A stretch of 13,719 nucleotides of DNA from positions 1 to 13,719 of the forward strand of contig JARLGP010000138.1 of NCBI GenBank assembly GCA_031292735.1, given 5' to 3'. The translations under genes and the position numbers were made by a program. Below, piece by piece: positions 320 through 13,719 of this stretch. Each line of letters starts with the position of its first letter. Position 1 is the stretch's first letter. The notes under the pieces are model-generated. The model was not told where the DNA came from. It saw nothing but the letters and a program-made list of their open reading frames with translations, and searched no databases. Origin of the DNA: Holophaga sp. (GTDB lineage Bacteria > Acidobacteriota > Holophagae > Holophagales > Holophagaceae).

Positions 320-324
320 GGGGG

Positions 325-330
325 ATTATA
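325..330 (-). promoter_or_regulatory. TATAAT -10 box, possible leaderless start for the envelope-protein gene
   Basis: On the minus strand a perfect TATAAT ends at 325, so transcription would start at about 318-319, exactly at the ATG of the leftward gene. No convincing -35 is seen (TGAGTC at 17-bp spacing) and there is no Shine-Dalgarno. If used, the mRNA would be leaderless. Rests on one hexamer. Confidence 0.35.
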
Positions 331-369
331 ACGGGGGAATCGCGGGGGACTCACAGATACCGATGACGG

Positions 370-375
370 TATGAT
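370..375 (+). promoter_or_regulatory. Candidate -10 box of the nuoABCD operon
   Basis: TATGAT matches five of six consensus positions and lies 33 bases before the nuoA ATG, in the 89-bp divergent gap between nuoA and the leftward envelope gene. No good -35 is visible at 16-18 bp. Transcription would start near 382, giving a leader of about 27 nt. Confidence 0.3.
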
Positions 376-408
376 CGGCGAGGAGCCTGTCTCCCCTCGG
401 ACTTCGCC

Positions 409-792: not shown

Positions 793-793
793 C

Positions 794-1402
794 ATGGCCG
801 GCATCAACCTCGACGATTCGGTGATGACCACGCGGCTGGATTCGGTGGTGAACTGGGCGCGCAAGAACAGCCTGTGGCCGCTGCCGTTCGGCACCGCCTG
901 CTGCGCCATCGAGTTCATGTCGATGATGGCCTCCCGCTACGATTTCTCCCGGTTCGGCGCGGAGGCCCTGCGCTTCAGCCCCAGGCAGAGCGACATGCTG
1001 CTGGTGCTGGGCACGGTCACCAACAAGCAGGCGCCGGTGCTGCGCCAGATCTACGCCCAGATGGCCGAGCCGAAATGGGTGGTGGCGGTGGGGGTGTGCG
1101 CCTCCTCGGGCGGCATGTACCGCACCTACGCCACCCTCCAGGGCATCGACCGGGTGGTGCCGGTGGATGTCTACGTGCCGGGCTGCCCGCCCCGTCCGGA
1201 GACCATGATCTACGGGGTGATGGAGCTGCAGAAGAAGATCGGCCGGGAGTGCTTGTCGGCGCGCAAGGAGCACATCGAGCGGTTCTACGCCTCCATGGCG
1301 CGCCAGGAGGAGCTGCAGCGGGCCAAGGGGCTGTCCTCCTACCAGGTGGTGCGCGAGATGGTGCTGGAGGCCGGCGCCGAGGGCGGGCAGCAGATCTGGT
1401 GA
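794..1402 (+). CDS. nuoB: NADH-quinone oxidoreductase subunit B (N2 cluster subunit)
   Basis: 202 residues from the ATG at 794 ([10 protein letters not shown]), chosen because GGGAG sits about eight bases upstream at 782-786 and the start falls one base after the nuoA stop. The frame is open further 5', but that would overlap nuoA. NuoB carries the terminal [4Fe-4S] cluster N2, which passes electrons to quinone. The ligands are visible: the tandem pair C36-C37 in GTACCAIE, C102 in GVCASSGG and C131 in VPGCPPRPE. The region after about residue 150 is a charged helical tail, somewhat longer than in many NuoB proteins. It sits with nuoA, nuoC and nuoD as one transcription unit. Confidence 0.97.
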
Positions 1403-1419
1403 GGGACTCGGGGGATGGG

Positions 1420-1917
1420 ATGGTGATCGAGCGGATCGAAGCACAGTTGCCGGGGGTCATCCTGGAGCGCCACGCGTTCCGGGGCGACGAGACCCTCACC
1501 GTGGCCGGGGAGAACTTCCTGGCGGTGGTGGACCTGATCTTCGCCGAGGGGTTCCAGATGCTGCTGGACGTCACCGCGGTGGACCTGGAGACCCCGGAAT
1601 TCCGGTTCGAGGTGGTCTACCACTGGCTGAACCTGGTGAGCCAGGAACGCCTGCGGATCAAGGTGCCGGTGGCGGAGGGGGTGGCCCAGCCCAGCCTGGT
1701 GAGCCGCTTCAAGTCCGCCGACTGGGCCGAGCGGGAGGTGTTCGACCTGTTCGGCATCCCCTTCGACGGCCACCCCAACCTCACCCGCCTGCTCATGTGG
1801 GAGGATTTCCCGGGCCACCCGCTGCGCAAGGATTTCCCCCTGGATGGCGGCGACCTGTTCTGCAGCCAGGACATCGGCGCCTCCTACGCTCCCGAAGCCC
1901 GTCCCCTGGAACCCTGA
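1420..1917 (+). CDS. nuoC: NADH-quinone oxidoreductase subunit C (30 kDa subunit)
   Basis: 165 residues from the ATG at 1420, with a G-rich Shine-Dalgarno (GGGGGAT, 1410-1416). A GTG at 1399 overlaps the nuoB stop as GTGA and would add seven residues (VRDSGDG), so a coupled start there is possible. NuoC is part of the peripheral arm and packs against NuoD. The family signature is clear in the C-terminal half: ADWAEREVFDLFGIPFDGHP (100-119), then LTRLLMWEDFPGHPLRKDFPL (121-141). It is a separate gene, not fused to nuoD as in enterobacteria. nuoD starts one base after the stop. Confidence 0.95.
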   Translation: MVIERIEAQLPGVILERHAFRGDETLTVAGENFLAVVDLIFAEGFQMLLDVTAVDLETPEFRFEVVYHWLNLVSQERLRIKVPVAEGVAQPSLVSRFKSADWAEREVFDLFGIPFDGHPNLTRLLMWEDFPGHPLRKDFPLDGGDLFCSQDIGASYAPEARPLEP

Positions 1918-1918
1918 G

Positions 1919-3127
1919 ATGACCATGGCAACCGAACCCAACAGCACCCGCGACGGCGACCGCATGATCGTCAATATGGGCCCCTCCCACCCGGCGACCC
2001 ACGGCACCCTGCACATCGTCCTGGAACTGGAGGGGGAGATCATCGTCAAGGCCACCCCCAACATCGGCTACCTGCACCGGGGGGTGGAGAAGCTGGGGGA
2101 GAACCTCACCTACCAGCAGTTCATCCCGCTCACCGACCGGCTGAACTACTGCAGTTCGCTCATGAACAACGTGGGATACGCGGTGGCGGTGGAGAAGCTG
2201 CTGGACATCCAGGATCCGCCCCGGTCCCGGGTGCTGCGGGTGCTGTGCTCCGAACTGGCGCGGATCGGCGACCACCTGGTGTGCATCGGCATCAACGCCG
2301 TGGACATCGGCGCCTTCACCGCCTTCCTCTACCTGTTCAAGGAGCGGGAAACCATCTACGACCTGTTCGAGATGATGGCGGGGCAGCGGCTGCACTCCAG
2401 CTTCACCCGCATCGGCGGCCTGTTCCGCGACATCCCGCCGGAGTTCGAGCCGCTGTGCGAGCAGTTCCTGGACAGCTGCCCGCGCACCGTGGACGAGATG
2501 GAGAGCCTGCTCACCCACAATCCCATCTGGGCCGACCGCACCAAGGGGGTGGGCGCCATCTCCGCGGCGGACGCCATCAACTGGGGCTACACCGGCCCCT
2601 GCCTGCGCGCCGCCGGGGTGGCCCAGGACCTGCGCAAGGCGCAGCCCTACCTGGACTACGGCAGCTACGAGTTCGACCTCCCGGTGGGCACCACCGGCGA
2701 CGTCTACGACCGCTACCTGGTGCGCACCGAGGAGATCCGCCAGTCCCTGCGCATCGTCCGCCAGTGCCTGGACCGGCTCAAGGAGATCGGCCCCGGGCCG
2801 GTGATCATCGAGGACTACAAGATCGCCCTGCCGCCCAAGGAGAAGGTCTACACCCGCATGGAAAGCCTGATCCACCACTTCAAGCTGATCATGCACGGCA
2901 TCGCGATGCCGGTGGGCGAAGTGTACAGCGCCACCGAGGCGGCCAACGGCGAGCTGGGCTTCTACATCGTCTCCCACGGCGGCAAGAGCCCCTACCGGAT
3001 CCACGTGCGGCCGCCCTGCTACCCGATCTTCAGCAGCTTCAACGAGCAGGTGCGCGGGCGCATCATCGCCGATGCGTTGGCGGTGCTGGGCGGGATGAAC
3101 ATCATCGCGGGAGAGCTCGACCGCTAG
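1919..3127 (+). CDS. nuoD: NADH-quinone oxidoreductase subunit D (49 kDa subunit)
   Basis: 402 residues from the ATG at 1919; an in-frame ATG at 1925 could also serve. NuoD forms most of the quinone-binding cavity beside cluster N2. Visible signatures: MGPSHPATHGTLH (20-32) with the loop histidines H24/H28, YLHRGVEKLGE (51-61), and PLTDRLNYCSS (70-80), whose Y77 corresponds to the quinone-contacting tyrosine of the family. The C-terminus is PPCYPIFSSFNEQVRGRIIA followed by GGMNIIAGELDR, the normal end of the protein. The TAG stop is followed by an unrelated porin rather than nuoE, so the rest of complex I must be encoded elsewhere. Confidence 0.97.
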   Translation: MTMATEPNSTRDGDRMIVNMGPSHPATHGTLHIVLELEGEIIVKATPNIGYLHRGVEKLGENLTYQQFIPLTDRLNYCSSLMNNVGYAVAVEKLLDIQDPPRSRVLRVLCSELARIGDHLVCIGINAVDIGAFTAFLYLFKERETIYDLFEMMAGQRLHSSFTRIGGLFRDIPPEFEPLCEQFLDSCPRTVDEMESLLTHNPIWADRTKGVGAISAADAINWGYTGPCLRAAGVAQDLRKAQPYLDYGSYEFDLPVGTTGDVYDRYLVRTEEIRQSLRIVRQCLDRLKEIGPGPVIIEDYKIALPPKEKVYTRMESLIHHFKLIMHGIAMPVGEVYSATEAANGELGFYIVSHGGKSPYRIHVRPPCYPIFSSFNEQVRGRIIADALAVLGGMNIIAGELDR

Positions 3128-3144
3128 TCCGGCCCAGGAACTTT

Positions 3145-3160
3145 TGCCCCGGCCAGGGCA
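3145..3160 (+). other. Small hairpin after nuoD
   Basis: TGCCC (3145-3149) and GGGCA (3156-3160) pair around a six-base loop, 18 bases after the nuoD stop. No T tract follows, so it is a weak candidate for 3' end formation of the nuo transcript. Confidence 0.25.
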
Positions 3161-3186
3161 GGGATTGAGGGAACGCGCTGGTGGCG

Positions 3187-3206
3187 CCGGTTCCAGCTGG
3201 AACCGG
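3187..3206. promoter_or_regulatory. Perfect 20-bp palindrome upstream of the porin
   Basis: CCGGTTCCAGCTGGAACCGG is a perfect palindrome, 48 bases before the porin ATG. It could be an operator for a dimeric regulator, or in RNA an 8-bp hairpin with an AGCT loop ahead of the porin Shine-Dalgarno. The half GGAACCGGG recurs in the hairpin just after the porin (4525-4560). Confidence 0.45.
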
Positions 3207-3254
3207 GTGGCAGCCGCCCCGTACCCGCAACCTTCCTCCTGGGGAGCAGAAGCC

Positions 3255-4493
3255 ATGATTTCCCATCGCATTTCCGGCGCCGCCCTGGCGGCCGTGCTGG
3301 TGGCCTTTCCTTCCGCGGCGGATGAGAAGGTCACCCCCAACTACATCAGCCTGCCCGGCACCGACACCAAGCTGAAGATCTATGGGGTGGCCTGGATAAA
3401 CAGCTGGTACTACTTCAACCAGAACCTGGGCGATGCCAGCACCCTCATCGCCGGCCAGGCCAACCCGCTGGATGCCCACGCCACCCCCGACGGCCAGTAC
3501 GGCATGACCGCGCGGTATTCCCGGCTCGGCTTCACCACCACCACCCCCAGCGCCCGGCTGGGCGACATCACCACCCTGGTGGAGATGGACTTCACCAAGG
3601 ACCAGGGCAAGAACGGCGGGTTCAGCCTGCGCCATGCCTACGTGGCCTTCGGCAACTGGACCGTCGGCTACACGTGGTCCAACTGGCTGGACCTGGATGC
3701 CAACCCCGAAACGGTGGACATGAACGGGCCGGTGGGCCAGGCCTGCAACGGCAGTTCCCGGTTCACCCAGGTCCGCTACCGGGTGCCCATGACCCAGCGT
3801 TCCAGCCTGGCCTTTTCGGTGGAGCAGAACCGGATGGGCTGGAGCAAGTTCCCCAGCGACGTGGTCAGGCCGACGGACACCCCGGCCACCACCCTGCCCG
3901 ACGCGCGCTACCCCACCCCCACCGCCGCCTACACCTTCGCCGACGACTGGGGCCACCTGGCCCTGCGCGCCATGGGGCAGAACTACGGCGTCTACGCGCC
4001 CGGGACCGCCAGCGCCGCCGGGTTCCGTTCCAGCCGGTGGGGCGGCGGGGTGCAGCTGTCCGGCACCGTCAAGCTGGGCCAGGACAAGCTGGTGGGCTCG
4101 GTCTACACCGGCCGCGGCCTGGGCGAGTACGGGGTGGGCATCCAGGCCATGCGCTTCGTGCCGACCGGCCAGGAGGAGCTCCTGCTGTTCCGCAACTACG
4201 GCTGGCAGGCCGGCTATACCCACGCCTGGACCAGCCAGGTGCGCTCCAACCTGGTGGTGAGCGGCATGGGCTACAGCAACGACGCCGCCGTGCAGCCCGC
4301 CTGCATCCGGAATTCCATGAACTACTTCGCCAACACCTACGTCAAGCTCACCCGCAACGTGGAGCTGGGCATGGAATACGGCTACGAGAACCTGCACACC
4401 TTCGGCGCCAACGCGGTGACCACCCACGGCGGCACCCTGTCCGACCACAACCGTTCCAACAAGCTGCAGATGTCCCTGACCGCCACCTTCTGA
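3255..4493 (+). CDS. Outer-membrane porin, DcaP-like
   Basis: 412 residues from the ATG at 3255, chosen because GGGGAG lies at 3241-3246 and it begins a signal peptide (MISHRISGAALAAVLVAFPSAA, cleavage probably near residue 22). The mature part is a run of alternating amphipathic strands ending in LTATF, with the terminal phenylalanine used for outer-membrane insertion. The N-terminal region (KIYGVAWINSWYYF, RYSRLGFTTTTP, LGDITTLVEMDF, FSLRHAYVAFGNWTVGYTWS, NPETVDMNGPVG) resembles the DcaP-like trimeric porin family, which admits small anionic, often aromatic or dicarboxylic, solutes. Two cysteines (C164, C350) could form a disulfide, unusual in a porin. Substrate unknown. A link to the aromatic-acid genes at the right end is possible but not shown by linkage. 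Confidence 0.75.
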   Translation: MISHRISGAALAAVLVAFPSAADEKVTPNYISLPGTDTKLKIYGVAWINSWYYFNQNLGDASTLIAGQANPLDAHATPDGQYGMTARYSRLGFTTTTPSARLGDITTLVEMDFTKDQGKNGGFSLRHAYVAFGNWTVGYTWSNWLDLDANPETVDMNGPVGQACNGSSRFTQVRYRVPMTQRSSLAFSVEQNRMGWSKFPSDVVRPTDTPATTLPDARYPTPTAAYTFADDWGHLALRAMGQNYGVYAPGTASAAGFRSSRWGGGVQLSGTVKLGQDKLVGSVYTGRGLGEYGVGIQAMRFVPTGQEELLLFRNYGWQAGYTHAWTSQVRSNLVVSGMGYSNDAAVQPACIRNSMNYFANTYVKLTRNVELGMEYGYENLHTFGANAVTTHGGTLSDHNRSNKLQMSLTATF

Positions 4494-4524
4494 GTTTTTT
4501 CCCCGAAGAATCCACGGATCGACC

Positions 4525-4560
4525 GGAACCGGGCGGTGCGCACGCGCACCGCCCGGTTCC
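4525..4560 (+). terminator. Strong hairpin after the porin gene
   Basis: GGAACCGGGCGGTGCG (4525-4540) and its exact complement CGCACCGCCCGGTTCC (4545-4560) form a perfect 16-bp stem with a CACG loop, 31 bases after the porin stop. No T tract follows; a T6 run lies before the stem at 4495-4500. It is probably a transcript-end or RNA-stabilising structure separating the porin from the exporter operon. Confidence 0.6.
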
Positions 4561-4632
4561 CTGTGGTTAACTGGAGGTCTGGACCCGCCATGCAGGGTTT
4601 TTCCTGATGCGACACCAGGGGGAACGATTGTG

Positions 4633-5829
4633 ATGAAACGAAATCGGTGGCTTCTTCTGGGCGGGGTGCTGGTGGTCCTGGCGCTGGGGGGCATCGCCGC
4701 GGCCCGGCGGAAGACCGGCATGCCGGTGCAGGTGGCGGTGGCGGCGCGTCAGGACCTCCAGGCCAAGGTGAGCGCCAACGGCAAGATCCAGGCGGTGAAG
4801 AAGGTGGACATCACCGCCAATTCCATCGGCCAGGTCACCCGGATGATGGTGAAGGAGGGGGATCCGGTGCGCACCGGGGAACTGCTGCTGGAGATCGACC
4901 CGATCCAGTCCCGGGCCGCCGCCCAGTCCCGGGAGGCCAACCTGAAGGCCACCACCCACGACCTGGCCACCGCCGAGGCCAAGCTGGACAAGACCCGCAA
5001 GGACTACGCCCGGGCGGTGCTCAACCACCAGGCCCGGATCATCTCCCAGAGCGACTTCGAACAGGCCAAGGCCAACCTGGACATGGACGAGAGCGCGGTG
5101 CGCAGCGACCGCCAGCACGTGGACCAGGCCCGGGCCGACCTGGCCGGCGCCACCGACGTGCTGGACAAGACCCGGATCACCTCGCCCATGACCGGCATGG
5201 TCACCGGCAAGCACATCGAACTGGGGGAGACCGCGGTGCCCGGCCTGCAGAACCAGCCGGGCACGGTGCTGCTCACCGTTTCCGACATGAGCCGGGTGGA
5301 GGCGGAGATGGAGGTGGACGAGGCGTCCATCCCCATGGTGAAGCTGGGCCAGTCGGCCCAGGTGCGCATCGACGCCTACCCCAACCAGGCCTTCGACGGG
5401 CTGGTCACCGAGGTGGGCGGCAGCCCCATCGTCCAGGCCAACAGCAACGAGGCCATCAAGTTCAAGGTGAAGGTCCAGCTCCGGCAGCCGCCCGCGGGCA
5501 TCAAGCCGGGGCTGTCGGCCCAGGCGGACATCTTCACCGGCAGCCGCAGCCAGGTGCTGGCCGTGCCCATCCAGGCCCTGGTGGTGAAGGATCTCAAGGC
5601 CAAGCCGGGCGAGCCGGCAGCCCCCCGGGAGCAGGAAGGGGTCTACGTGATGGAAGCCGGCCGGGCGGTGTTCCGGCCACTGCGCACCGGGCTCATGGGC
5701 GACCTCATGGTGGAGGTGCTGTCCGGCCTCCAGGGCGGGGAACAGGTGATCATCGGCCCCTTCAAGGCGCTGCGGGAACTGAAGGACCGCGACCCGGTGC
5801 GGGTGGACGACCGCAAGAAGGCGGACTGA
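4633..5829 (+). CDS. Periplasmic adaptor (membrane fusion protein) of a MacA-type exporter
   Basis: 398 residues from ATG 4633, preceded by GGGGGA (4618-4623); a GTG directly before it is also in frame. One N-terminal membrane anchor (about 7-24) with no lipobox. Then come a barrel-sandwich half (QAKVSANGKIQAVKKVDITA, EGDPVRTGELLLEIDP), a long helical hairpin (about 92-178, rich in Ala, Lys, Asp and Gln) and the return lipoyl half (DKTRITSPMTGMVTGKHIELGETA). Beta-barrel and membrane-proximal domains follow (VEAEMEVDEASIPMVKLGQ, GLSAQADIFTG). This is the domain order of MacA/HlyD-type adaptors that join an inner-membrane ABC permease to an outer-membrane TolC-like channel. The next gene starts immediately after the stop, so it works with the two permeases. 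No TolC homologue is in the window, and the exported substrate cannot be read from sequence. Confidence 0.88.
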   Translation: MKRNRWLLLGGVLVVLALGGIAAARRKTGMPVQVAVAARQDLQAKVSANGKIQAVKKVDITANSIGQVTRMMVKEGDPVRTGELLLEIDPIQSRAAAQSREANLKATTHDLATAEAKLDKTRKDYARAVLNHQARIISQSDFEQAKANLDMDESAVRSDRQHVDQARADLAGATDVLDKTRITSPMTGMVTGKHIELGETAVPGLQNQPGTVLLTVSDMSRVEAEMEVDEASIPMVKLGQSAQVRIDAYPNQAFDGLVTEVGGSPIVQANSNEAIKFKVKVQLRQPPAGIKPGLSAQADIFTGSRSQVLAVPIQALVVKDLKAKPGEPAAPREQEGVYVMEAGRAVFRPLRTGLMGDLMVEVLSGLQGGEQVIIGPFKALRELKDRDPVRVDDRKKAD

Positions 5830-7056
5830 ATGCGGGCCTCCGACCTGGCCGGCGCCGCCCTGGGGGCCCTGCGGGCCCACAAGCTGCGCAGCTTCCTCAC
5901 CCTGCTGGGGGTCATCATCGGGGTGGCCACCATGGTCAGCGTGGTGGGGGTCATCTCCGGCCTGGACGCCTACGTGAAGGACAAGGTGATCCGCCTGGCG
6001 CCGGATGTGTTCGTGGTGGACCGGCTGGGCATCATCCAGTCGCACCGGGCCTTCATCCAGGCGCTCAAGCGGCCGTTGCTCACCTGGGCGGATTTCGAGC
6101 GGGTGCGCGACGCCAAGCTGCCGCACACTACCCAGGTGAGCACCCGGGCGTTCCGCTCCATGACCGTCAAGTTCGGCGAGAAGCACCTGGCCAATGTGCT
6201 CGTGGTGGGCTCCACCGCCAATTTCGCGCCCATGTTCCAGCTGGACACCGAGGCCGGCCGCTACTTCTCGGAGAACGAGGACCGCAGCGCCGCCAACGTG
6301 GCGGTGATCGGCGCCGACACCCGGGACGAGCTGTTCCCCCACCTGGATCCCCTGGGCCGCACCCTCACCCTGGGCGGGCTGCCGTTCCGGATCATCGGCG
6401 TGTTCTCCCGGCAGGGCAAGGCGCTGGGCTTCAGCCGGGACACCCTGGTCTGCATCCCCATCCAGGTCTACCGCAAGAACTTCATGTCGGCCCACGATTC
6501 CCTGAACATCCAGGTGCAGGCCCGGGGCGGGGTGGCCGGGCTGGACGCCTCGGTGGACGAGGTGCGGGCCCTGCTGCGGGCCCTCCGCCACACCAGTTTC
6601 CGCGACCCCGACCCGTTCGGCATCCTCACCCAGGACGTGCTGCAGGACCTGTGGAAGCAGGTGAGCCGGGCCGCCTTCGTGCTCATGCTGCTGGTGTCCT
6701 CGGTGAGCCTGGGGGTGGGCGGGATCGTCATCATGAACATCATGCTGGTGAGCGTGGTGGAGCGCACCGGCGAGATCGGCATCCGCATGGCCCTGGGCGC
6801 CCGCAAGCAGGACATCGCCCGCCAGTTCCTGCTGGAGGCCGCCATCCTCAGCCTGTGCGGCGGCGTGCTGGGGCTGCTGGCCGGGGCCTGCGTGGCCTGG
6901 GCGGTGCGCACCCTGGTGGACTTCCCGGCCCAGATCACCCTGGGCATCGTCGGCGCCAGCATCGCCGTGGCCACCCTGGTGGGGCTGGCCGCGGGCCTGC
7001 TGCCGGCGCGCCGGGCCGCGAACCTGCCGGTGATCGACGCCCTGAGGGCGGAATGA
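5830..7056 (+). CDS. MacB/FtsX-type ABC transporter permease (first of a pair)
   Basis: 408 residues; the ATG directly abuts the adaptor's TGA (TGAATG). The MacB permease fold is visible: an N-terminal helix after AHKLRSFLTLLGVIIGVATM (17-36), a periplasmic domain of about 230 residues (with VVGSTANFAPMF and VAVIGADTRDELFP), then three C-terminal helices. The second helix is followed by the conserved GGIVIMNIMLVSVVERTGEIGIRMALGARKQDI block, the coupling region to the ATPase. It ends in the usual PVIDALRAE. Unlike MacB it has no fused nucleotide-binding domain, so it needs a separate LolD/MacB-type ATPase, not found here. Its stop overlaps the start of the second permease (ATGA), so the two are translationally coupled and probably form a heterodimer. 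Confidence 0.9.
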   Translation: MRASDLAGAALGALRAHKLRSFLTLLGVIIGVATMVSVVGVISGLDAYVKDKVIRLAPDVFVVDRLGIIQSHRAFIQALKRPLLTWADFERVRDAKLPHTTQVSTRAFRSMTVKFGEKHLANVLVVGSTANFAPMFQLDTEAGRYFSENEDRSAANVAVIGADTRDELFPHLDPLGRTLTLGGLPFRIIGVFSRQGKALGFSRDTLVCIPIQVYRKNFMSAHDSLNIQVQARGGVAGLDASVDEVRALLRALRHTSFRDPDPFGILTQDVLQDLWKQVSRAAFVLMLLVSSVSLGVGGIVIMNIMLVSVVERTGEIGIRMALGARKQDIARQFLLEAAILSLCGGVLGLLAGACVAWAVRTLVDFPAQITLGIVGASIAVATLVGLAAGLLPARRAANLPVIDALRAE

Positions 7057-8345
7057 GCCGCCAGCGCCGGCGCGGCGTGCTGAGCGCCCTGGGGCCGGAG
7101 ACGTTCCGTTTCGCGTTCCGCTCCATCCAGGCCCAGAAGCTGCGCAGCTTCCTCACCCTGCTGGGGATCCTGGCGGGGGTGGCCACCGTGATCGCCATGG
7201 TCAGCTTCGTGGCCGGGTTCAACCAGGCGATCACCGGCGCCTTCGCCTCCAGCGGCACCAGCCTGGTCCAGTTCCAGAAGTTCGAGCCCCGGTTCGGCGG
7301 CCCGCCGGAACTGATCCCGGACGAGCAGAAGCACCGGCGCAACCTCACCCTGGAGGACGCCGCGGCGCTCAAGCGGCTGGCTTCCCTGGCCGCGGCGGTC
7401 TCCCCGGAGCGGGACCTGCTTTCGGTGACCACCACCGTTCCGGTGAAGAACCGCCAGGGCGCCGAGGCCAACGGCCCCGGCATCCTGGGGGTGACCCCCG
7501 ACTACAGCCTGGCCAACAACCGCTCCGTGGACGACGGCCGCTTCTTCAGCGCCAACGACCTGGCCTTCGAGACCCGCACCTGCGTCATCGGCGCCGACCT
7601 GGTGAAGTCGCTGTTCCCCACCCGGGACCCGGTGGGCCAGGAGGTGCTGGTGCAGGGGGTGGCGTTCCAGGTGATCGGCGTGCTGGAAAAGCGCGGCTCC
7701 CAGTTCGGCGGCAGCGCCGACAGCCTGCTGCTGATGCCCCTGACGGTGTTCGACGGCCTGTTCCCCCAGGTGAAGGACGGCACCGGCGACACCCTGCACA
7801 TCGCCACGGTGCCCAGGGATCCCCGCCGGGTGCAGGAACTCACCGACCAGGAGGTGGCCGTCCTGCGCAGCCGCCGGGGCCTCAAGGCCCACCAGGAAAA
7901 CGATTTCGCCATCTTCACCAGCGACGAGAGCCTGGCCACCTTCCGGCAGATCACCGCCAGCATCGCCGCCGCCATGATCTTCATCGCCGCCATCGCCCTG
8001 CTGGTGGGGGGCGTGGGCATCATGAACATCATGCTGGTGAACGTCACCGAGCGCACCCGGGAGATCGGGGTGCGCAAGGCCCTGGGGGCCACCCGCAAGG
8101 ACATCGCCGGCCAGTTCCTGGTGGAGGCGGTGGCGCTCACCGGGCTGGGCGGGGCGCTGGGCATCGGCTGCGGGCTGGGGGTGGCCATGGCGGCGCGGCT
8201 CATCTTCGATTTCCCGGCCGCGGCGCCGCTGTGGAGCGTGGCCCTGGGTTTCGGCATCAGCACCGCCATCGGCCTGGGCTTCGGCCTGTGGCCGGCGGTG
8301 AAGGCGGCCCGGCAGGATCCCATCGAGGCGCTGCGCTACGAGTGA
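7053..8345 (+). CDS. MacB/FtsX-type ABC transporter permease (second of a pair)
   Basis: 430 residues from ATG 7053, which overlaps the preceding stop by four bases. Paralogous to the first permease: QKLRSFLTLLGILAGVATVI matches HKLRSFLTLLGVIIGVATMV, and GGVGIMNIMLVNVTERTREIGVRKALGATRKDI matches the same coupling block. One N-terminal helix, a large periplasmic domain (VIGADLVKSLFPTRDPVGQEVLV is the usual MacB core), three C-terminal helices and the final DPIEALRYE. No ATPase domain. The frame is also open upstream through the adaptor gene, but the upstream translation is low-complexity Gly/Pro/Arg shadow, so the real start is 7053. The 3' end overlaps the convergent kinase gene by ten bases. 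Confidence 0.9.
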   Translation: MSRQRRRGVLSALGPETFRFAFRSIQAQKLRSFLTLLGILAGVATVIAMVSFVAGFNQAITGAFASSGTSLVQFQKFEPRFGGPPELIPDEQKHRRNLTLEDAAALKRLASLAAAVSPERDLLSVTTTVPVKNRQGAEANGPGILGVTPDYSLANNRSVDDGRFFSANDLAFETRTCVIGADLVKSLFPTRDPVGQEVLVQGVAFQVIGVLEKRGSQFGGSADSLLLMPLTVFDGLFPQVKDGTGDTLHIATVPRDPRRVQELTDQEVAVLRSRRGLKAHQENDFAIFTSDESLATFRQITASIAAAMIFIAAIALLVGGVGIMNIMLVNVTERTREIGVRKALGATRKDIAGQFLVEAVALTGLGGALGIGCGLGVAMAARLIFDFPAAAPLWSVALGFGISTAIGLGFGLWPAVKAARQDPIEALRYE

Positions 8346-9814
8346 CCGTCCAGCACCGCCCGCACGGTGCGGGTCAGGTCCAGCAACCGGAACGGCTTCT
8401 GGATGAAGTGGGTGTCTTCCTGCATGAGTCCGCGCTTGGCGATGATGTCGCCGGTATAGCCGGAGATGAAGATCACCTGGATCCCGGGGCGCACCTGGGT
8501 GATGCGCGCCTCCAGTTCCTTGCCGTTCATGCCGGGCATCACCACGTCGGTGATGAGCAGGTGGATGGGGCCCTCGTGCTGCTGGGCCAGGAGGAAGGCG
8601 TCCAGCGGGTTCTGGGCGGCCAGCACGGTGTAGCCCTTGCCTTCCAGGGCCACGCGGATGACGTTCAGCATGGGCATTTCGTCCTCCGCCACCAGGATGG
8701 TCTCGTGCCCGCCGGAAACCGCCTCCTCCTGGGTCGGCTGGTCTCCGGCGCACTGCTCCTGGCAGGTGGGCAGGTAGAGCTTGAAGGAGGTTCCCAGGCC
8801 CAGGTGGCTGTACACCGAGATGGCGCCGAGGTTCTGCTTGACGATGCCGTAGACCGTGGCCAGGCCCAGCCCGGTGCCCTCGCCCTCGCCCTTGGTGGTG
8901 AAGAACGGCTCGAACAGGTGCTCCAGGGTATGGGCGTCCATGCCGCTGCCGGTGTCGCTCACCGTGAGCTTCACGTAGGAGCCCACCGGCAGGTTGCCGT
9001 GGATCAGGCTGGATTCCTCGTCCACCCGGACGGTGGCGGTCTCGATGCTGATGGTGCCCGCCCCGGGCAGGGCGTCCCGGGCGTTGATCACTAGGTTGGC
9101 CAGGATCTGGCTCACCTGGTTGGGATCGATGAACACCGGTTGCGGCCGCGGCGCGGGATGGAACACCAGTTCGATGTCCCGCTCGATCATGCGCAGGAGC
9201 ATCTTCTGGTTGTCCTTCACCACCACGTTGAGGTCGACCCGCTGGGGCTGGGCCGGCTGCTTGCGGGAAAAGGCCAGCAGTTGCCGGGTGAGCAATGCCG
9301 AGCGCTCAGCAGCCTGCTGGATCTCCTGGATGCGCAACCGGTGCGCGTCGCTCAGGTCCTTGCCCAGGAGGGTGATCTCCGCGTTGAGCAGGATGACGCT
9401 GAGCATGTTGTTGAAGTCGTGGGCCACGCCTCCGGCCAGCCGGCCCACCGCTTCCATCTTCAGGGATTGCCGGTACTCCGCTTCGATGCGCCGCTGCTCG
9501 GTGATGTCCTCCGCGATGCCGATGAAGTGGGCCAGCTCGCCCGCCTCGTTCCGCAGCGGGGTGATGGCCAGCTGGAAATTCTGGAGAGCCCCGGACTTGT
9601 GGCGGTTGACCAGCTCGCCGCGCCACACCTCACCGGCCTGGAGGGTGGTCCAGAGGTCCTTGAACACAGTGGCGTCCTGGATGCTCGACCACAGGAACCG
9701 GGGGTTGCGGCCCAGCAACTCGGCCTGGTTGTAGCCGGTGGCGGCCAGGAAGGCCGGGTTGACCCATTCGACGACCCCCTGCGGGTCCGTGATCAGGATG
9801 CCGTTGGCGGCCAC
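8336..9814 (-). CDS. PAS-histidine kinase-receiver part of a hybrid sensor kinase (downstream of an in-frame TAG)
   Basis: 492 codons counted from a GTG directly after the TAG of the upstream ORF, in the same frame. Domains: PAS (about 1-105; ILITDPQGVVEWVNPAFLAATGY, DITEQRR), HisKA with H132 in GGVAHDFNNML, HATPase with LVINARDAL (241-249), DTGSGM (287-292) and GTGLGLA (313-319), and a C-terminal receiver (about 371-490) with D423 in LLITDVVMPGMNG and lysine in FIQKPF. No membrane segment, so the signal is cytosolic. The H-box type (HDFNN) is that of kinases that often carry a receiver. The GTG has no proper Shine-Dalgarno, and SAAL*VAANGILITD matches the common uninterrupted linker SAALEAAANGI-ITD. 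The gene is therefore probably the larger half of one broken or read-through hybrid kinase. Translation as an independent protein is uncertain. Confidence 0.85.
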   Translation of the reverse strand: MAANGILITDPQGVVEWVNPAFLAATGYNQAELLGRNPRFLWSSIQDATVFKDLWTTLQAGEVWRGELVNRHKSGALQNFQLAITPLRNEAGELAHFIGIAEDITEQRRIEAEYRQSLKMEAVGRLAGGVAHDFNNMLSVILLNAEITLLGKDLSDAHRLRIQEIQQAAERSALLTRQLLAFSRKQPAQPQRVDLNVVVKDNQKMLLRMIERDIELVFHPAPRPQPVFIDPNQVSQILANLVINARDALPGAGTISIETATVRVDEESSLIHGNLPVGSYVKLTVSDTGSGMDAHTLEHLFEPFFTTKGEGEGTGLGLATVYGIVKQNLGAISVYSHLGLGTSFKLYLPTCQEQCAGDQPTQEEAVSGGHETILVAEDEMPMLNVIRVALEGKGYTVLAAQNPLDAFLLAQQHEGPIHLLITDVVMPGMNGKELEARITQVRPGIQVIFISGYTGDIIAKRGLMQEDTHFIQKPFRLLDLTRTVRAVLDGHS

Positions 9815-9817
9815 CTA
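9815..9817 (-). other. In-frame amber codon splitting a hybrid histidine kinase
   Basis: On the minus strand the reading is CTG TAG GTG GCC GCC AAC, that is L-stop-V-A-A-N. Kinases of this architecture commonly read S-A-A-L-E-A-A-A-N here, so TAG stands where GAG (Glu) is expected, one G-to-T change away. The frame is otherwise continuous over 673 codons. TAG is used as a normal stop by nuoD, the transporter and the kinase itself in this window, which argues against general recoding. Confidence 0.75.
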
Positions 9818-10357
9818 CAGGGCGGCGCTCTTCAGCCGCAGCATGGACTCCACCTGCAGCAGCTCATCCACCTGGCGGCTCAGTTGCTGGGTGCGCTGGT
9901 CCAGCTTCTGGACAAGCCGTTCGTTATAGAGCTTCAGGTAGGGGCCCTCCGCCGTGTCCCCGGGTTCGGGGACCGGCAGGGTGCCCGCCTGGGCCCGGGC
10001 CACCACTTTCTGCACCTGCGCCAGGAACACGTCGGGCTCCATGGGCTTGCGCAGGAAGGCCGCCGCGCCCAGGGACAGGGCGAACAGCTCGTCCTCTTCC
10101 GCCTGGTAGGTGGCGGTGTAGAAGATGAACGGGATCCCGCGCCAGCGGGGGTCCTCGAACCAGGCCCGGCAGAGGGCGAAGCCGTCCATGACCGGCATCA
10201 GGATATCGGAGATCACCAGGTCCGGCCGGTCTTTCCGGGCCCACTGCAACGCCTCCTGGCCGTTCTCGGCGCAAAGGGTGGCATGCCCCTGGCTGCCCAG
10301 GAGGATCTGCAGCAGCTTGAGATTGGTCCGGTTGTCATCTACCAGCAGGATCTTCAT
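9815..10357 (-). CDS. Receiver domain plus coiled coil: N-terminal part of the split hybrid kinase
   Basis: 180 residues from the ATG at 10357 (MKILLVDDNRTN), chosen over an in-frame GTG at 10375 because AGGAG lies six bases upstream. The receiver domain is complete: acidic pair D7-D8, phosphoacceptor D51 in VISDILMPVMDGF, the T/S position in FYTATY and K104 in FLRKP. It is followed by a linker and a heptad-like helix (LYNERLVQKLDQRTQQLSRQ onward), which is the usual connector into a PAS domain. The ORF then ends at TAG. Alone it would be a receiver with a helical tail and no output domain. Read through, it is the input receiver of a REC-PAS-HK-REC hybrid. First gene of the leftward unit. Confidence 0.85.
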   Translation of the reverse strand: MKILLVDDNRTNLKLLQILLGSQGHATLCAENGQEALQWARKDRPDLVISDILMPVMDGFALCRAWFEDPRWRGIPFIFYTATYQAEEDELFALSLGAAAFLRKPMEPDVFLAQVQKVVARAQAGTLPVPEPGDTAEGPYLKLYNERLVQKLDQRTQQLSRQVDELLQVESMLRLKSAAL

Positions 10358-10445
10358 AGCGTACTCCTGGACCACTCAACGTTGCGGAACGTGGTGATCG
10401 TATCGGTGAACGTGTCTGGGCTGATGCGCTTTTCAAGATACTCCA

Positions 10446-10469
10446 GTAACCCCCCCAGCGGGGGGATAC
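10446..10469. repeat. C6-AGC-G6 hairpin
   Basis: CCCCCC (10451-10456), loop AGC, GGGGGG (10460-10465), with outer GTA/TAC pairs across a small internal bulge. It lies about 90 bases upstream of the kinase start on the minus strand. It could be a structured leader or terminator element; no T tract adjoins it. Confidence 0.4.
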
Positions 10470-10564
10470 CGGATCTGCGGGCGGCGGCGCCAGCTTCTAG
10501 TTCACGCTCCCTGATACCGCCGCCCACCCGGCCGGGGCCACAGGCTCAAGCCATGCTGAAAACG

Positions 10565-10579
10565 ATAGGCAAAAGCTAT
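10565..10579. promoter_or_regulatory. LysR-type box upstream of the transporter (ATAG-N7-CTAT)
   Basis: ATAGGCAAAAGCTAT has the T-N11-A LysR-family layout with ATAG/CTAT arms. It begins a 57-bp element repeated at 13271-13327. The box is centred at 10572, about 65 bases before the predicted transcription start, the usual recognition-site position for activating LysR proteins. ATAGGCAAAA also recurs alone at 10748-10757. Confidence 0.6.
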
Positions 10580-10600
10580 AGGTATGCCCGTAAAATAGTT

Positions 10601-10630
10601 TTGGACGTTTAAATCGATCCTACGGATCAT
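10601..10630 (+). promoter_or_regulatory. Candidate LysR-dependent promoter of the transporter gene
   Basis: TTGGAC (10601-10606), 18-bp spacer, GATCAT (10625-10630, four of six to TATAAT). TTGGAC lies inside the identical 13-mer TAGTTTTGGACGT shared with the copy at 13302-13314. The weak -10 and long spacer suit an activator-dependent promoter. Predicted start near 10637, giving a leader of about 280 nt. Confidence 0.5.
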
Positions 10631-10660
10631 ACAAATATCGAAATACAGGGGTGTGTCGAA

Positions 10661-10705
10661 ATGAATCTGGGCGTAATTCCCAGCTGGATCCTTCGTGCTC
10701 GCTGA
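10661..10705 (+). CDS. Possible 14-codon leader peptide
   Basis: ATG at 10661 with AGGGG at 10647-10651 reads MNLGVIPSWILRAR then TGA. It lies just after the predicted transcription start of the transporter mRNA and contains the hairpin CTGGG-N7-CCCAG (10667-10683). No run of a single regulatory amino acid is seen. Chance is a real alternative for so short an ORF. Confidence 0.15.
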   Translation: MNLGVIPSWILRAR

Positions 10706-10768
10706 TTTCAAGTTGAAGCCATCGCAGAACCTAGTATCAGGGATCGCATAGGCAAAAAACTTCCTGAA

Positions 10769-10788
10769 ATTTACGACTTATTGTAAAT
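10769..10788. repeat. Inverted repeat ATTTAC-N8-GTAAAT
   Basis: Six-base arms 10769-10774 and 10783-10788 in the AT-rich part of the transporter leader. Could be an operator or a weak RNA hairpin; no assignment possible. Confidence 0.3.
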
Positions 10789-10847
10789 CCACGAAGTTAT
10801 CGAACCGCTCTTCAAACCTGGCCCCCCTATGCCCAGCCGGGAATACC

Positions 10848-10868
10848 ATCGGACCGCTACCGTCCGAT
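10848..10868. repeat. Inverted repeat ATCGGAC-N7-GTCCGAT
   Basis: Perfect seven-base arms (10848-10854, 10862-10868) around a seven-base loop, 47 bases before the transporter ATG. It would form a stem in the mRNA leader or serve as a protein-binding site. Confidence 0.4.
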
Positions 10869-10915
10869 TCGTCCAGGCCCGGCACCAGGGACCGATTGCT
10901 CATAGGAGAAAACGA

Positions 10916-12334
10916 ATGTCCTCCAATAACGCGAAAATCATGGGGTGGCAGGTCATCCTGGCTTCCTGGCTGGCGGTGTTCTGCCTCTTCGGATATCGGG
11001 CCACCTTCGCCATCCTCAAGGGGCCCATGGCCATCACCCTGGGCTGGAGCGCCTCCCAGGTCACGCTGGGCTACTCCCTGATGATGGTGTTCTATGCGGT
11101 CACCGCCTACTTCAGCGGCATGATCCTGGACAAATGGGGCACCCGGCCCGTCTACGCGATTGCCGCCGTGCTGGGCTGCCTGGGCTTCGTCCTGACCGCC
11201 CGGGTGAGCACCAACCTGGCCTACCTCTTCACCTTCGGTTTCCTCGGCGGGGTCGCCACCGGCATGCTCTGGGTCACCAGCACCGTGTCGGTTCGCAAGT
11301 GGTATGTGGGTGGAACCTACGCGACCATGTGGGGCTTCGCCTTCGCCGGCGGGCCCATGGCCCAGTTCGTTCTGGCCCAGCTGGTCAAGCCGGTCCTGAG
11401 CTCCGCCCAGAGCCGCCTGGACCTGGCGGTCAAGGCGCTGCTGCCCAATGCCGCCTCCCTCTCCGGCCGCGACCTGGCCGCCGCCATCGCCACCAAGCTC
11501 AAGGATCCGGCCGCCCTGGCGGTGCCGGAGGTGCACTCCGCCCTGGATGCCCTGAACCACGCCTGGCGCTCCGAGATGACCCTCCTGGGAGGCATCGTCC
11601 TCCTGGCCCTGGTGGTCGCGGTGCTGGTGGCCAAGAAGTCTCCCGAGGCCTATGGCCTGAAGCCCTTCGGCGCCCTGCCCGCGGCCGGAGCCGCCGCCGC
11701 CGCGCCCGAGCGGGAGTGGGGCCTGGGCGAGGCCTTCTGCAACTACGCCATCTGGGGCGCGGTGCTGACCTTCCTCACCAGCGTCATGGCCGAGTTCCTC
11801 ATCTGGACCCAGGTGGTGAGCTACTGGACCACCGATGCCGGCTTCCCGCTCAAGAAGGCCACCAGCATCTACGCCTTCATCGGCCTGGTGGGGATCTTCT
11901 CCATGCCCATCATGGGCAAGGTGGCCGACAAGGTGGTGGTCAAGGTCGGTGACGAGGCCACCGGGCGCAAGATCATGCTGATCGTGGGGCCCGCCCTGGG
12001 CGTGGTGGCCTGCGCGGTGCTCCTGGCCAGCGGCGTCAGCCCGGTGCTCCCCTACCTCTCCTGCTTCATCTTCGCGGTCTACTGGGCCATCGTGCCCGGC
12101 GGGGTGGTGGGCTACACGGGCGCCATGTACGGGCGCAAGACCCTGGGCAAGATCTGGGGCCTGGCCACCCTGATCGCCATGGGCGTGGGCCCCTTCGTGG
12201 GCTCCTTCATGGGCGGCTACCTGAAGGACGCCACCGGCCACTACACCGCGTCGATCTACTTCGCCCTGTGCTCGTTCGTGGCTTCCACCCTGCTGGCCGT
12301 CTCCCTGCCGCTGGCCAGGCGCCGGCAAAGCTAG
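10916..12334 (+). CDS. Major facilitator transporter, oxalate/formate-antiporter (OFA) type
   Basis: 472 residues from ATG 10916, set by AGGAG seven bases upstream; a longer in-frame start would lack the site. About twelve hydrophobic helices. Motif A of the major facilitator superfamily is at 68-78 (GMILDKWGTRP). The N-terminal helices (GYRATFAILKGPMAITLGWS, TLGYSLMMVFYAVTAYFSG) have the style of the oxalate:formate antiporter family, which carries small organic anions. A polar loop of about 60 residues (158-220) lies between helices 5 and 6, predicted periplasmic. It converges on the LysR gene (20-bp gap) and shares its upstream 57-bp element with the glycyl radical enzyme. Uptake of an arylacetate, perhaps with export of a product, is therefore inferred; the substrate is not shown by sequence alone. 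Confidence 0.85.
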   Translation: MSSNNAKIMGWQVILASWLAVFCLFGYRATFAILKGPMAITLGWSASQVTLGYSLMMVFYAVTAYFSGMILDKWGTRPVYAIAAVLGCLGFVLTARVSTNLAYLFTFGFLGGVATGMLWVTSTVSVRKWYVGGTYATMWGFAFAGGPMAQFVLAQLVKPVLSSAQSRLDLAVKALLPNAASLSGRDLAAAIATKLKDPAALAVPEVHSALDALNHAWRSEMTLLGGIVLLALVVAVLVAKKSPEAYGLKPFGALPAAGAAAAAPEREWGLGEAFCNYAIWGAVLTFLTSVMAEFLIWTQVVSYWTTDAGFPLKKATSIYAFIGLVGIFSMPIMGKVADKVVVKVGDEATGRKIMLIVGPALGVVACAVLLASGVSPVLPYLSCFIFAVYWAIVPGGVVGYTGAMYGRKTLGKIWGLATLIAMGVGPFVGSFMGGYLKDATGHYTASIYFALCSFVASTLLAVSLPLARRRQS

Positions 12335-12354
12335 TCCTGCAACCGGCAGCTGCT

Positions 12355-13251
12355 TCAGGGCCGCGTGACTTCCCGGGCGACCGCGAGCAGCCGCTGGAGC
12401 ATGGGGGATGGATTGTCCGGGTTCCATACCAGGTGGATCCTGATCCGGAGATCGATGTTCTGGATCGGGATCTGCACGATCCCCTCGTAACGGGCGTGGC
12501 CCGGGATGGCGATGCCCAGCGCGCAGCCGAACCCGGCTGCCACCAGGCTCCGGGTGGTGGCGAAGCTGCTGGCCTCCTGGACGATCTTGGGCCTCCAGTT
12601 GCGGTCCTTCAGGGCCTCCCGGAACACCGCCCAGTACGACGTGTTGGCGTCCGCCTCGGGCCAGATGAAATCCAGCCCGGCCAGGTCGTCCAGGCGCAGC
12701 GAGGCGCGGCTGGACAGGGGATGCCCCTCGGGCAGCATGGCCAGGATGGGGATGTCCATGAGGGGCATGCCTTCCAGGGCCAACTCGGTCGCCTCGGTGG
12801 GACGGTGGCCGACGATCCCGGCATCGATCTTCCCCTCGAGGATGGCCTGGTACTGGGCCTGGGAGTGCAGTCCCACCAGCTTGAGGCGCAGGCCCGGGTG
12901 ACGGGTGCCCAGCTGGTGGAGCAGGGTGGGGATCGGCTCGACGGCGGTGAAGGCTTCCAGGATGGACACGCGGAGCGACCCGACCTCCCCGCGCTCGATC
13001 TGCCTTGCGGCGTCCGTGGCAGCGGTCAGGCGGGCCAGCATCTGCCGGACCTCGGTCTGGAAGTACTGTCCCGCCGGAGTGAGCTGGACGCCGCGCCCCT
13101 TGTGGGCGAACAGGGTGAGGCCCAGTTCCGCCTCCATGTCCTTGATCCGCTGGGACAGCGACGGCTGGGCGATATGGAGCTTATGGGCCGCCTGGGTGTA
13201 GTTTTCCGTCTCCGCCACAGCCACGAAGTAACGAAGGTGCCGAAGCTCCAT
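12355..13251 (-). CDS. LysR-family transcriptional regulator
   Basis: 298 residues from ATG 13251, chosen because GGGAGG lies about seven bases upstream and MELRHLRYFVAVAETENYTQ is the standard family start. An in-frame ATG at 13278 falls inside the operator palindrome and is unlikely. The winged helix-turn-helix spans about 1-60 (AAHKLHIAQPSLSQRIKDME, LFAHKGRGVQLTPAG), followed by the linker helix and a two-lobed effector domain (about 90-290: GSLRVSILEAF, IDAGIVGHRP, LVAAGFGCALGIAIPGH). The N-terminus resembles the BenM/CatM group that senses aromatic-acid intermediates. Its gene sits between transporter and enzyme, divergent from the enzyme, with an ATAG-N7-CTAT box 20 bases before its own ATG. 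Autoregulation and activation of both neighbours are inferred; the ligand is probably an arylacetate. Confidence 0.92.
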   Translation of the reverse strand: MELRHLRYFVAVAETENYTQAAHKLHIAQPSLSQRIKDMEAELGLTLFAHKGRGVQLTPAGQYFQTEVRQMLARLTAATDAARQIERGEVGSLRVSILEAFTAVEPIPTLLHQLGTRHPGLRLKLVGLHSQAQYQAILEGKIDAGIVGHRPTEATELALEGMPLMDIPILAMLPEGHPLSSRASLRLDDLAGLDFIWPEADANTSYWAVFREALKDRNWRPKIVQEASSFATTRSLVAAGFGCALGIAIPGHARYEGIVQIPIQNIDLRIRIHLVWNPDNPSPMLQRLLAVAREVTRP

Positions 13252-13270
13252 AGTCCCTCCCAAAGGAATC

Positions 13271-13285
13271 ATAGCCATTGGCTAT
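13271..13285. promoter_or_regulatory. LysR-type operator palindrome in the regulator-enzyme divergent region
   Basis: ATAGCCATTGGCTAT is a perfect palindrome with seven-base arms around a central T and shows the LysR T-N11-A pattern. It lies 20 bases before the regulator's ATG, and its centre (13278) is about 65 bases before the predicted start of the enzyme transcript. It therefore suits both autoregulation and activation. It begins the second copy of the 57-bp element. Confidence 0.75.
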
Positions 13286-13306
13286 GGGTTCGCTACGAAA
13301 TTAGTT

Positions 13307-13336
13307 TTGGACGTGAAAATCGATGCTCCCGATACT
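13307..13336 (+). promoter_or_regulatory. Candidate LysR-dependent promoter of the glycyl radical enzyme
   Basis: TTGGAC (13307-13312), 18-bp spacer, GATACT (13331-13336, four of six to TATAAT). Spacing and distance from the LysR box equal those of the copy before the transporter. Predicted start near 13343, giving a leader of about 180 nt before the ATG at 13522. Confidence 0.5.
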
Positions 13337-13367
13337 TGGAATCCTAGAAGAAAAGTTGCCAGCCGAG

Positions 13368-13482
13368 GGGGCCCTGGATGGGTCTGGGGCCCCATGAGAA
13401 TTCGTGTCTGCGGCGTGGCCGCAGAAGCAGTTGCTCCGCCTGTTTCCGGAGGCATCCTGACGGCCGATCGCATGGACCGTCA
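13368..13482 (+). other. Three consecutive hairpins in the enzyme's 5' leader
   Basis: Hairpin 1: GGGGCCC (13368-13374) with GGGCCCC (13387-13393). Hairpin 2: TCTGCGGC (13407-13414), loop GTG, GCCGCAGA (13418-13425), perfect. Hairpin 3: TGACGGCC (13458-13465) with GG-A-CCGTCA (13474-13482), one bulged A. All lie between the predicted transcription start and the Shine-Dalgarno AGGAGG (13512-13517); a T5 run at 13498-13502 follows. I do not recognise a known riboswitch class. Attenuation, stabilisation or a riboswitch are possible. Confidence 0.45.
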
Positions 13483-13521
13483 CGGGCATTAATTCCCTTT
13501 TTAACCCCCAAAGGAGGAAGG

Positions 13522-13719
13522 ATGACCACATCCGCAGTTTCCCTGGAAGACGTCCTGAAAAGCCGCAACATCGCCGTTTCCGACGTTGCCGACCCCCAGG
13601 ATTACAAGATCCCGGATCCCAAAGAGAGCACCCAGCGGCTCATGGAGATCTACTACAGCCTGAAGGTCACCGCCGACATGGAGGCTCCCTACTGGTACAA
13701 CCGGACCTGGTGGGACAAC
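13522..13719 (+). CDS. Glycyl radical arylacetate decarboxylase (HpdB/PhdB type), N-terminal part
   Basis: 66 codons to the window edge, still open. ATG 13522 has a full AGGAGG four bases upstream. The segment STQRLMEIYYSLKVTADMEA (36-55) followed by PYWYNR (56-61) matches, from memory, the N-terminal region of clostridial 4-hydroxyphenylacetate decarboxylase HpdB (VYYNTLSTADMEFPYWYNR). Known arylacetate-decarboxylating glycyl radical enzymes form p-cresol (HpdB), skatole (indoleacetate decarboxylase) or toluene (PhdB, described from anoxic communities, one host being an acidobacterium). All act in the anaerobic cytosol and need a radical-SAM activating enzyme. The catalytic Cys and Glu, the C-terminal glycyl loop and the activase are outside the window, so substrate cannot be decided. 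The transporter and LysR context supports an aromatic-acid function. Confidence 0.78.
   Translation, partial: MTTSAVSLEDVLKSRNIAVSDVADPQDYKIPDPKESTQRLMEIYYSLKVTADMEAPYWYNRTWWDN

What the first reader, a model, noticed from the sequence alone, without database searches (positions are those of the whole stretch)
10916..13719. Candidate arylacetate uptake-and-decarboxylation locus (toluene-, p-cresol- or skatole-forming)
Seen: an OFA-type transporter, a LysR regulator and, divergently, a protein whose first 66 residues carry the TADME-PYWYNR signature of HpdB-type glycyl radical decarboxylases. Known: this family is small (4-hydroxyphenylacetate, indoleacetate and phenylacetate decarboxylases), and the toluene-forming member PhdB was described from anoxic communities, one host being an acidobacterium. 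Inference: in a GC-rich non-clostridial host with a dedicated transporter and regulator, phenylacetate is a leading substrate candidate. This would be a regulated system with its own uptake route.
Basis: partly seen in the sequence, partly recalled or inferred. Interest (0 to 1): 0.92.

Follow-up and report, generated by a model that had tools for sequence, protein, structure and literature searches.

The report
Acidobacterial p-cresol-forming decarboxylase locus, truncated
The window's end carries the start of a well-known type of oxygen-sensitive enzyme that most likely turns 4-hydroxyphenylacetate into p-cresol, next to a probable uptake transporter and a regulator that appears to control both; it is a known kind of system in an unusual (probably acidobacterial) host, not a new toluene maker.

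Summary
The window holds an MFS transporter gene (10916-12334 +), a LysR gene (12355-13251 -) and the first 66 codons of a glycyl radical enzyme (13522-13719 +), cut off by the contig end. The fragment looks specifically like the 4-hydroxyphenylacetate decarboxylase large subunit (HpdB): 63% identical to the solved C. scatologenes enzyme, the only PDB sequence it matches, and without a BLAST match to two model-verified indoleacetate decarboxylases. A metagenomic protein 91% identical over the 66 residues is a complete HpdB with Glu637 and passes the curated HpdB cut-off. So p-cresol formation is most likely; phenylacetate/toluene is not supported, though PhdB's own sequence could not be compared. 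New here: a 63-bp block, 46 of 63 identical, lies upstream of both transporter and hpdB and contains a T-N11-A palindrome, which suggests one LysR regulon. Small subunit and activase would lie beyond the contig and were not seen for this contig.

The parts
10565..10627 (+). shared upstream block of the transporter gene: LysR-type box ATAGGCAAAAGCTAT (10565-10579) followed by TAGTTTTGGACGTttAAATCGAT (10596-10618); ends 288 bases before the transporter ATG
   Evidence: 46 of 63 ungapped identity to 13271-13333, 0 of 2000 shuffle pairs as good; box and core each found only twice in the window
10916..12334 (+). MFS transporter, 472 aa; probable arylacetate (4-hydroxyphenylacetate) importer
   Evidence: Pfam MFS_1; a 48% identical relative lies directly upstream of hpdB in Caproiciproducens L005, the only relative at E<=1e-20 in that genome
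12355..13251 (-). LysR-family regulator (listed ORF extends to 13278; probable start at residue 10, 13251)
   Evidence: Pfam HTH_1 and LysR_substrate; best family models start at residue 10
13271..13333 (+). shared upstream block of hpdB, in the lysR-hpdB divergent intergenic region: LysR-type box ATAGCCATTGGCTAT (13271-13285) and TAGTTTTGGACGTgaAAATCGAT (13302-13324); begins 19 bases upstream of the lysR start, ends 188 bases before the hpdB ATG
13510..13519 (+). Shine-Dalgarno-like AAAGGAGGAA before hpdB
   Evidence: read directly from the sequence
13522..13719 (+). first 66 codons of hpdB, 4-hydroxyphenylacetate decarboxylase large subunit, truncated by the contig end
   Evidence: 63% identity to PDB 2y8n; NF033715; 91% over 66 aa to complete P0152

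Best explanation
This is the left part of a 4-hydroxyphenylacetate decarboxylase (HPAD, HpdBCA) locus in a Holophagaceae-type acidobacterium. The transporter brings in 4-hydroxyphenylacetate made by other organisms. LysR senses it (or a related aromatic) and activates both the transporter and hpdB through a shared operator. HpdB, with a glycyl radical installed by an activase encoded beyond the contig end, and with the iron-sulfur subunit HpdC, decarboxylates it to p-cresol and CO2. Shown from sequence: the gene order, the HpdB likeness of the fragment, and the shared upstream block. Inferred: substrate, transporter cargo, LysR target and inducer, host, and presence of hpdC and hpdA downstream.
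For: The fragment matches one distinct PDB sequence at E<=1, the HPAD large subunit, while its full-length relative P0152 matches 35 distinct solved sequences at E<=1e-10. P0152 is 91% identical over the 66 aa. Among 13 pairs of HpdB proteins with 88-94% N-terminal identity, the rest of the protein was at least 88% identical. P0152 passes the HPAD equivalog model (1611 bits, cut-off 1150) and fails the indoleacetate decarboxylase one (637, cut-off 1100). P0152 aligns to 2y8n without gaps and has Leu400, Cys503, Glu505, Glu637 and Gly873. All 9 members of its tree clade pass the HPAD model (P0152 and P0155, the other 7). The clade (SH-aLRT 99) includes the protein named uncultured Holophaga sp. 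and sits among Bacillota HPADs. In the 15 Bacillota loci, hpdC follows hpdB in 15 and hpdA in 14. A transporter relative sits directly upstream of hpdB in L005. The 63-bp shared block was equalled in 0 of 2000 shuffles, and its palindrome and core occur only at these two places.
Against: Only 66 of about 897 residues of the enzyme are in the window; hpdC and hpdA are not seen for this contig. The scan of species genomes gave 15 loci, none titled as an acidobacterium, so the host assignment rests on named protein hits. A relative of the transporter (E<=1e-20) occurs in only 1 of 15 HPAD-carrying genomes, and that relative (48%) is more distant than one named from a Clostridia bacterium (62%), so the transporter family is not dedicated to HPAD. 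No sigma-70 promoter passed the consensus scan in 10376-13719, so promoter positions are unassigned. No HpdC is listed with the contig length of P0152 itself (120 of 165 hits listed).
Confidence: 0.88

Rival explanations
1. The enzyme is a phenylacetate decarboxylase (PhdB-like) and the locus makes toluene.
For: PhdB was reported from an acidobacterium in sewage sludge (PMC9226047, passage read). In an enrichment culture, phenylacetate and 4-hydroxyphenylacetate decarboxylation co-purified (PMC4979209, passages).
Against: The fragment and its 91% proxy go with HPAD, the proxy with Glu637 and HPAD model scores. C. scatologenes HPAD made no detectable toluene (PMC4979209, passages). The passages seen treat PhdB as an enzyme separate from HPAD (PMC6181972; PMC9248008). 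PhdB's sequence itself was not available for comparison.
Confidence: 0.04
2. The enzyme is an indoleacetate decarboxylase (skatole-forming).
For: Some indoleacetate decarboxylase clusters carry an MFS transporter (PMC6181972, passages).
Against: Two indoleacetate decarboxylases verified by NF033718 (1666 and 1660 bits), with Ala and Leu at two of the three positions named as diagnostic, are 12% identical to the fragment over 58 aligned columns, and BLAST at E<=10 gave no match between them and the fragment.
Confidence: 0.01
3. The locus is HPAD, but the transporter and LysR are unrelated neighbours (for example a monocarboxylate transporter), and HPAD works on internally made 4-hydroxyphenylacetate.
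For: The transporter's best curated match is to the L-lactate family, below cut-off. 14 of 15 HPAD genomes lack it at E<=1e-20.
Against: Shared 63-bp upstream block with LysR-type box; transporter relative adjacent to hpdB in Caproiciproducens; published proposal that MFS proteins in HPAD and indoleacetate decarboxylase clusters import arylacetates (PMC6181972, passages).
Confidence: 0.12

Closest known systems
4-hydroxyphenylacetate decarboxylase HpdBCA / CsdBCA (C. difficile, C. scatologenes; PDB 2y8n, 2yaj)
   Same: N-terminal fragment 63% identical to 2y8n; the full-length proxy aligns without gaps over residues 5-896, with the catalytic residues checked
   Different: Host appears to be Acidobacteriota; a LysR gene and an MFS gene flank hpdB, where C. 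scatologenes has the HpdDEFG, HpdJ and HpdK tyrosine genes in its HPAD cluster (PMC13285125, abstract and section 2.1 read). What lies right of hpdB here is unknown.
MFS-linked HPAD and indoleacetate decarboxylase clusters of Olsenella scatoligenes
   Same: decarboxylase gene cluster with an MFS gene, proposed to import the arylacetate (PMC6181972, passages)
   Different: no sequence comparison with the Olsenella transporter was made; the LysR and the shared block were seen only in this window
Phenylacetate decarboxylase PhdB
   Same: glycyl radical arylacetate decarboxylase; one source is an acidobacterium (PMC9226047, passage)
   Different: fragment and proxy fall with HPAD; PhdB sequence not compared

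Membership tests
4-hydroxyphenylacetate decarboxylase (HPAD) | sequence passes the curated large-subunit model NF033715 | tested here: inconclusive
   fragment matches the model (E 1.1e-12, 46.6 bits) but is too short for the 1150-bit cut-off; proxy P0152 passes with 1611 bits
4-hydroxyphenylacetate decarboxylase (HPAD) | thiyl Cys503, Glu505, phenol-side Glu637, glycyl Gly873 | not testable with these tools
   outside the window; present in the proxy and in 7 further clade members examined one by one; Glu637 in 122 of 126 HpdB rows, gap in 4
4-hydroxyphenylacetate decarboxylase (HPAD) | iron-sulfur small subunit HpdC | not testable with these tools
   beyond the contig; HpdC listed with an equal contig length for 4 of 9 clade members; Holophaga HpdC P0295 passes NF033716 (110 bits, cut-off 50)
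4-hydroxyphenylacetate decarboxylase (HPAD) | radical-SAM activase HpdA nearby | not tested
   beyond the contig; motif present downstream in 14 of 15 Bacillota loci; not looked for in the Holophaga clade
Indoleacetate decarboxylase | passes NF033718; Ala396 and Leu616 pattern of PMC6181972 (His514 not checked) | tested here: not met
   proxy scores 637 bits against a cut-off of 1100 and has Leu400 and Glu637; the fragment itself is 12% identical to two verified members over 58 columns
Phenylacetate decarboxylase PhdB | closest relationship to the PhdB sequence | not testable with these tools
   no PhdB sequence obtained; PMC7079210 is not held
OFA oxalate/formate antiporter | passes TIGR00890 (cut-off 375 bits) | tested here: not met
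   47 bits
LysR-type regulator | HTH_1 and LysR_substrate domains | tested here: met
LysR-type regulator | T-N11-A palindrome at its target promoters (preference recalled) | tested here: inconclusive
   such palindromes lie upstream of both genes and nowhere else in the window as ATAG-N7-CTAT; binding not tested

The most novel reading that the evidence does not exclude
A LysR-controlled import-and-decarboxylate cycle in an acidobacterium in which uptake of the 4-hydroxyphenylacetate anion plus proton-consuming decarboxylation to membrane-permeant p-cresol acts as an indirect proton pump or pH defence (a role already suggested for these decarboxylases in PMC6181972, passage), acquired from Bacillota and rewired under a local two-promoter regulon.
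Probability: 0.2. Interest if true: 0.5.

Novelty: new member of a known kind. Interest (0 to 1): 0.3.

Why it matters
It adds Holophagaceae-type acidobacteria to the likely p-cresol formers and supplies a concrete, testable regulator, operator and transporter arrangement for an arylacetate decarboxylase. It also removes a false lead for a new toluene producer. HPAD outside Bacillota and Olsenella is not new in itself: passages seen name it in Tannerella (PMC6181972), in Proteobacteria and Planctomycetes transcripts (PMC13228077) and in Bathyarchaeota and Chloroflexi (PMC6258724). On print for this host: no paper in the held library has both 'Holophaga' and '4-hydroxyphenylacetate decarboxylase'. 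Of six with 'hydroxyphenylacetate decarboxylase' and 'Acidobacteri', passages of four were seen and none of those passages assigns HPAD to an acidobacterium; two were seen as listings only. The four papers with 'Holophaga' and 'p-cresol' were seen as listings only. A database record already names the Holophaga sp. protein as HPAD.

Tried and rejected
Whole genome of the window: none held. Plasmid collection: no match for window 1-12000. Viral contigs with P0152 and with P0002: no relatives. Rfam on 10376-13719: nothing. Folding of the two leaders: no unusual stability (z -1.26 and -0.79), so no riboswitch or attenuator is claimed. Sigma-70 scan: no promoter passed; the conserved TTTTGGAC was considered as a -35 element (my note says so) and dropped because TTGGAC matches TTGACA at only 3 of 6 positions. 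Contig-length matching is only a weak proxy for linkage: transporter relative P0032 and HpdB relative P0174 both list a longest contig of 10,986 bases, but with 120 x 120 listed entries one such match can arise by chance, so it is not used as evidence. The structure 7e7l, named hydroxyphenylacetic acid decarboxylase in the PDB, matches P0152 only from residue 266 on, so the N-terminal fragment does not point to it.
Full report
What is there. Searches confirm the three genes: MFS transporter 10916-12334 (+, 472 aa), LysR regulator 12355-13251 (-; the listed ORF reaches 13278 but the best family models start at its residue 10), and an ORF starting at 13522 that runs off the contig after 66 codons. 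No whole genome is held for the window. The window is 67% GC.

The enzyme fragment. By phmmer the 66 residues match one distinct PDB sequence at E<=1, the large subunit of 4-hydroxyphenylacetate decarboxylase (2y8n, E 6.1e-22), at 63% identity. NCBIfam at E<=0.1 gives only the HPAD large-subunit model (E 1.1e-12); Pfam gives nothing. A scan of species genomes with two short patterns found 15 loci with 53-70% identity; their titles are all of Bacillota members and none is an acidobacterium. hpdC follows hpdB in 15 of 15 loci (14 by motif; L013 with a variant motif) and the hpdA motif in 14 of 15 (not found in L014).

A full-length proxy. A protein search with an HpdB alignment gave 995 hits at E<=1e-30, 120 listed. 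BLAST of the fragment hit 119 of the 120; the best is P0152, 91% over all 66 residues, an 897-residue JGI metagenome protein. To judge what N-terminal identity predicts, I compared 7602 pairs among 126 HpdB rows. The 13 pairs with 88-94% N-terminal identity had 88.4-97.1% identity in the rest. P0152 aligns to 2y8n over residues 5-896 without gaps. It has Leu400, Cys503, Glu505, Glu637 and Gly873, as do 7 further relatives checked. The roles of Cys503, Glu637 and Leu400 are from passages of PMC4979209 and PMC6181972; the numbers Glu505 and Gly873, and Ser344 and His536 as pocket residues, are recalled. P0152 passes NF033715 with 1611 bits (cut-off 1150) and fails the indoleacetate decarboxylase model with 637 (cut-off 1100).

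Controls. Two glycyl radical enzymes from the genomes of L007 and L008 (Clostridium; L032 and L033) pass the indoleacetate decarboxylase model with 1666 and 1660 bits. They carry Ala and Leu at two of the three positions that PMC6181972 names as conserved in that family only; the third, His514, was not checked. They are 34-35% identical to P0152 and 12% identical to the window fragment over 58 columns, and BLAST at E<=10 finds no match between them and the fragment. So the fragment separates HPAD from these. PhdB's sequence could not be obtained (PMC7079210 not held), so separation from PhdB rests on HPAD membership and on the published finding that C. scatologenes HPAD gave p-cresol but no detectable toluene (PMC4979209, passages).

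Host and origin. The transporter's closest relatives with an organism name are Mesoterricola sediminis (72%) and Holophaga sp. (72%); Mesoterricola is in Holophagaceae, Acidobacteriota. In a 54-row quick tree (SH-aLRT only) P0152 lies in a 9-member clade (support 99) that includes P0155, named uncultured Holophaga sp.; the clade sits among Bacillota HPADs, which suggests transfer from Bacillota. Only P0155 in this clade has an organism name, so the host label for the others is inference. The other five, P0152 included, have no such match among the 120 of 165 HpdC hits listed. All 9 clade members pass NF033715 (2, 7).

Transporter. It is an MFS protein, but the curated oxalate/formate antiporter cut-off is not met; the only PDB relative at E<=0.001 is the L-lactate transporter 6g9x (E 6.8e-11). 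In Caproiciproducens (L005) a 48% identical protein lies 56 bases upstream of hpdB. It is the only relative in that genome, and the other 14 HPAD genomes have none at E<=1e-20. PMC6181972 proposes that MFS proteins in HPAD and indoleacetate decarboxylase clusters import the arylacetate (passages). The same family has a 62% relative in a Clostridia bacterium, so a role dedicated to HPAD is plausible but unproven.

The regions upstream of the transporter and of hpdB share a 63-bp ungapped block, 46 of 63 identical (10565-10627 and 13271-13333). None of 2000 dinucleotide shuffles of the pair reached its score of 29 (largest 17). Each copy begins with ATAG-N7-CTAT, a T-N11-A palindrome; this pattern occurs only at these two places in the window (0.01 expected). 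The core TAGTTTTGGACGT-NN-AAATCGAT also occurs only there. The hpdB copy begins 19 bases upstream of the probable lysR start, a layout that fits an autoregulated, divergently transcribed LysR system (general knowledge, recalled). I infer that LysR activates both genes. No sigma-70 promoter passed the scan, so exact promoter positions are open. The blocks end 288 bases (transporter) and 188 bases (hpdB) before the start codons, so long leaders are implied; neither folds unusually well.

Verdict. Best reading: an HPAD (p-cresol-forming) uptake-and-decarboxylation locus of a Holophagaceae-type bacterium, under one LysR. It is a new member of a known kind. The toluene reading is not supported.

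Noticed in passing
window 409-3127: A run of four ORFs that look like nuoABCD (the last confirmed as the 49-kDa subunit; the others by eye), followed by a DcaP-like porin (3144-4493).
   Followed up: partly
window 4630-8345: HlyD-type membrane-fusion protein and MacB/FtsX-type permease, with what looks by eye like a second FtsX-type permease within the long ORF ending at 8345 (not scanned).
   Followed up: no
window 8336-10375 (-): PAS hybrid histidine kinase and a stand-alone response regulator, divergent from the transporter.
   Followed up: no
P0174: HpdB relative with AVGGCLES instead of CLGGCLES around the thiyl cysteine; its longest-contig length equals that of transporter relative P0032.
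   Followed up: partly
P0215, P0217: HPAD large subunits attributed by their source to Alphaproteobacteria MAGs, 70% identical to L001.
   Followed up: no
L014: Phascolarctobacterium locus has hpdB and hpdC but no hpdA motif in the fetched stretch; the genome held is only 0.8 Mb.
   Followed up: no
P0231: Olsenella uli HpdB-like protein (68% to L001) is named formate C-acetyltransferase by its source, probably a misannotation.
   Followed up: no
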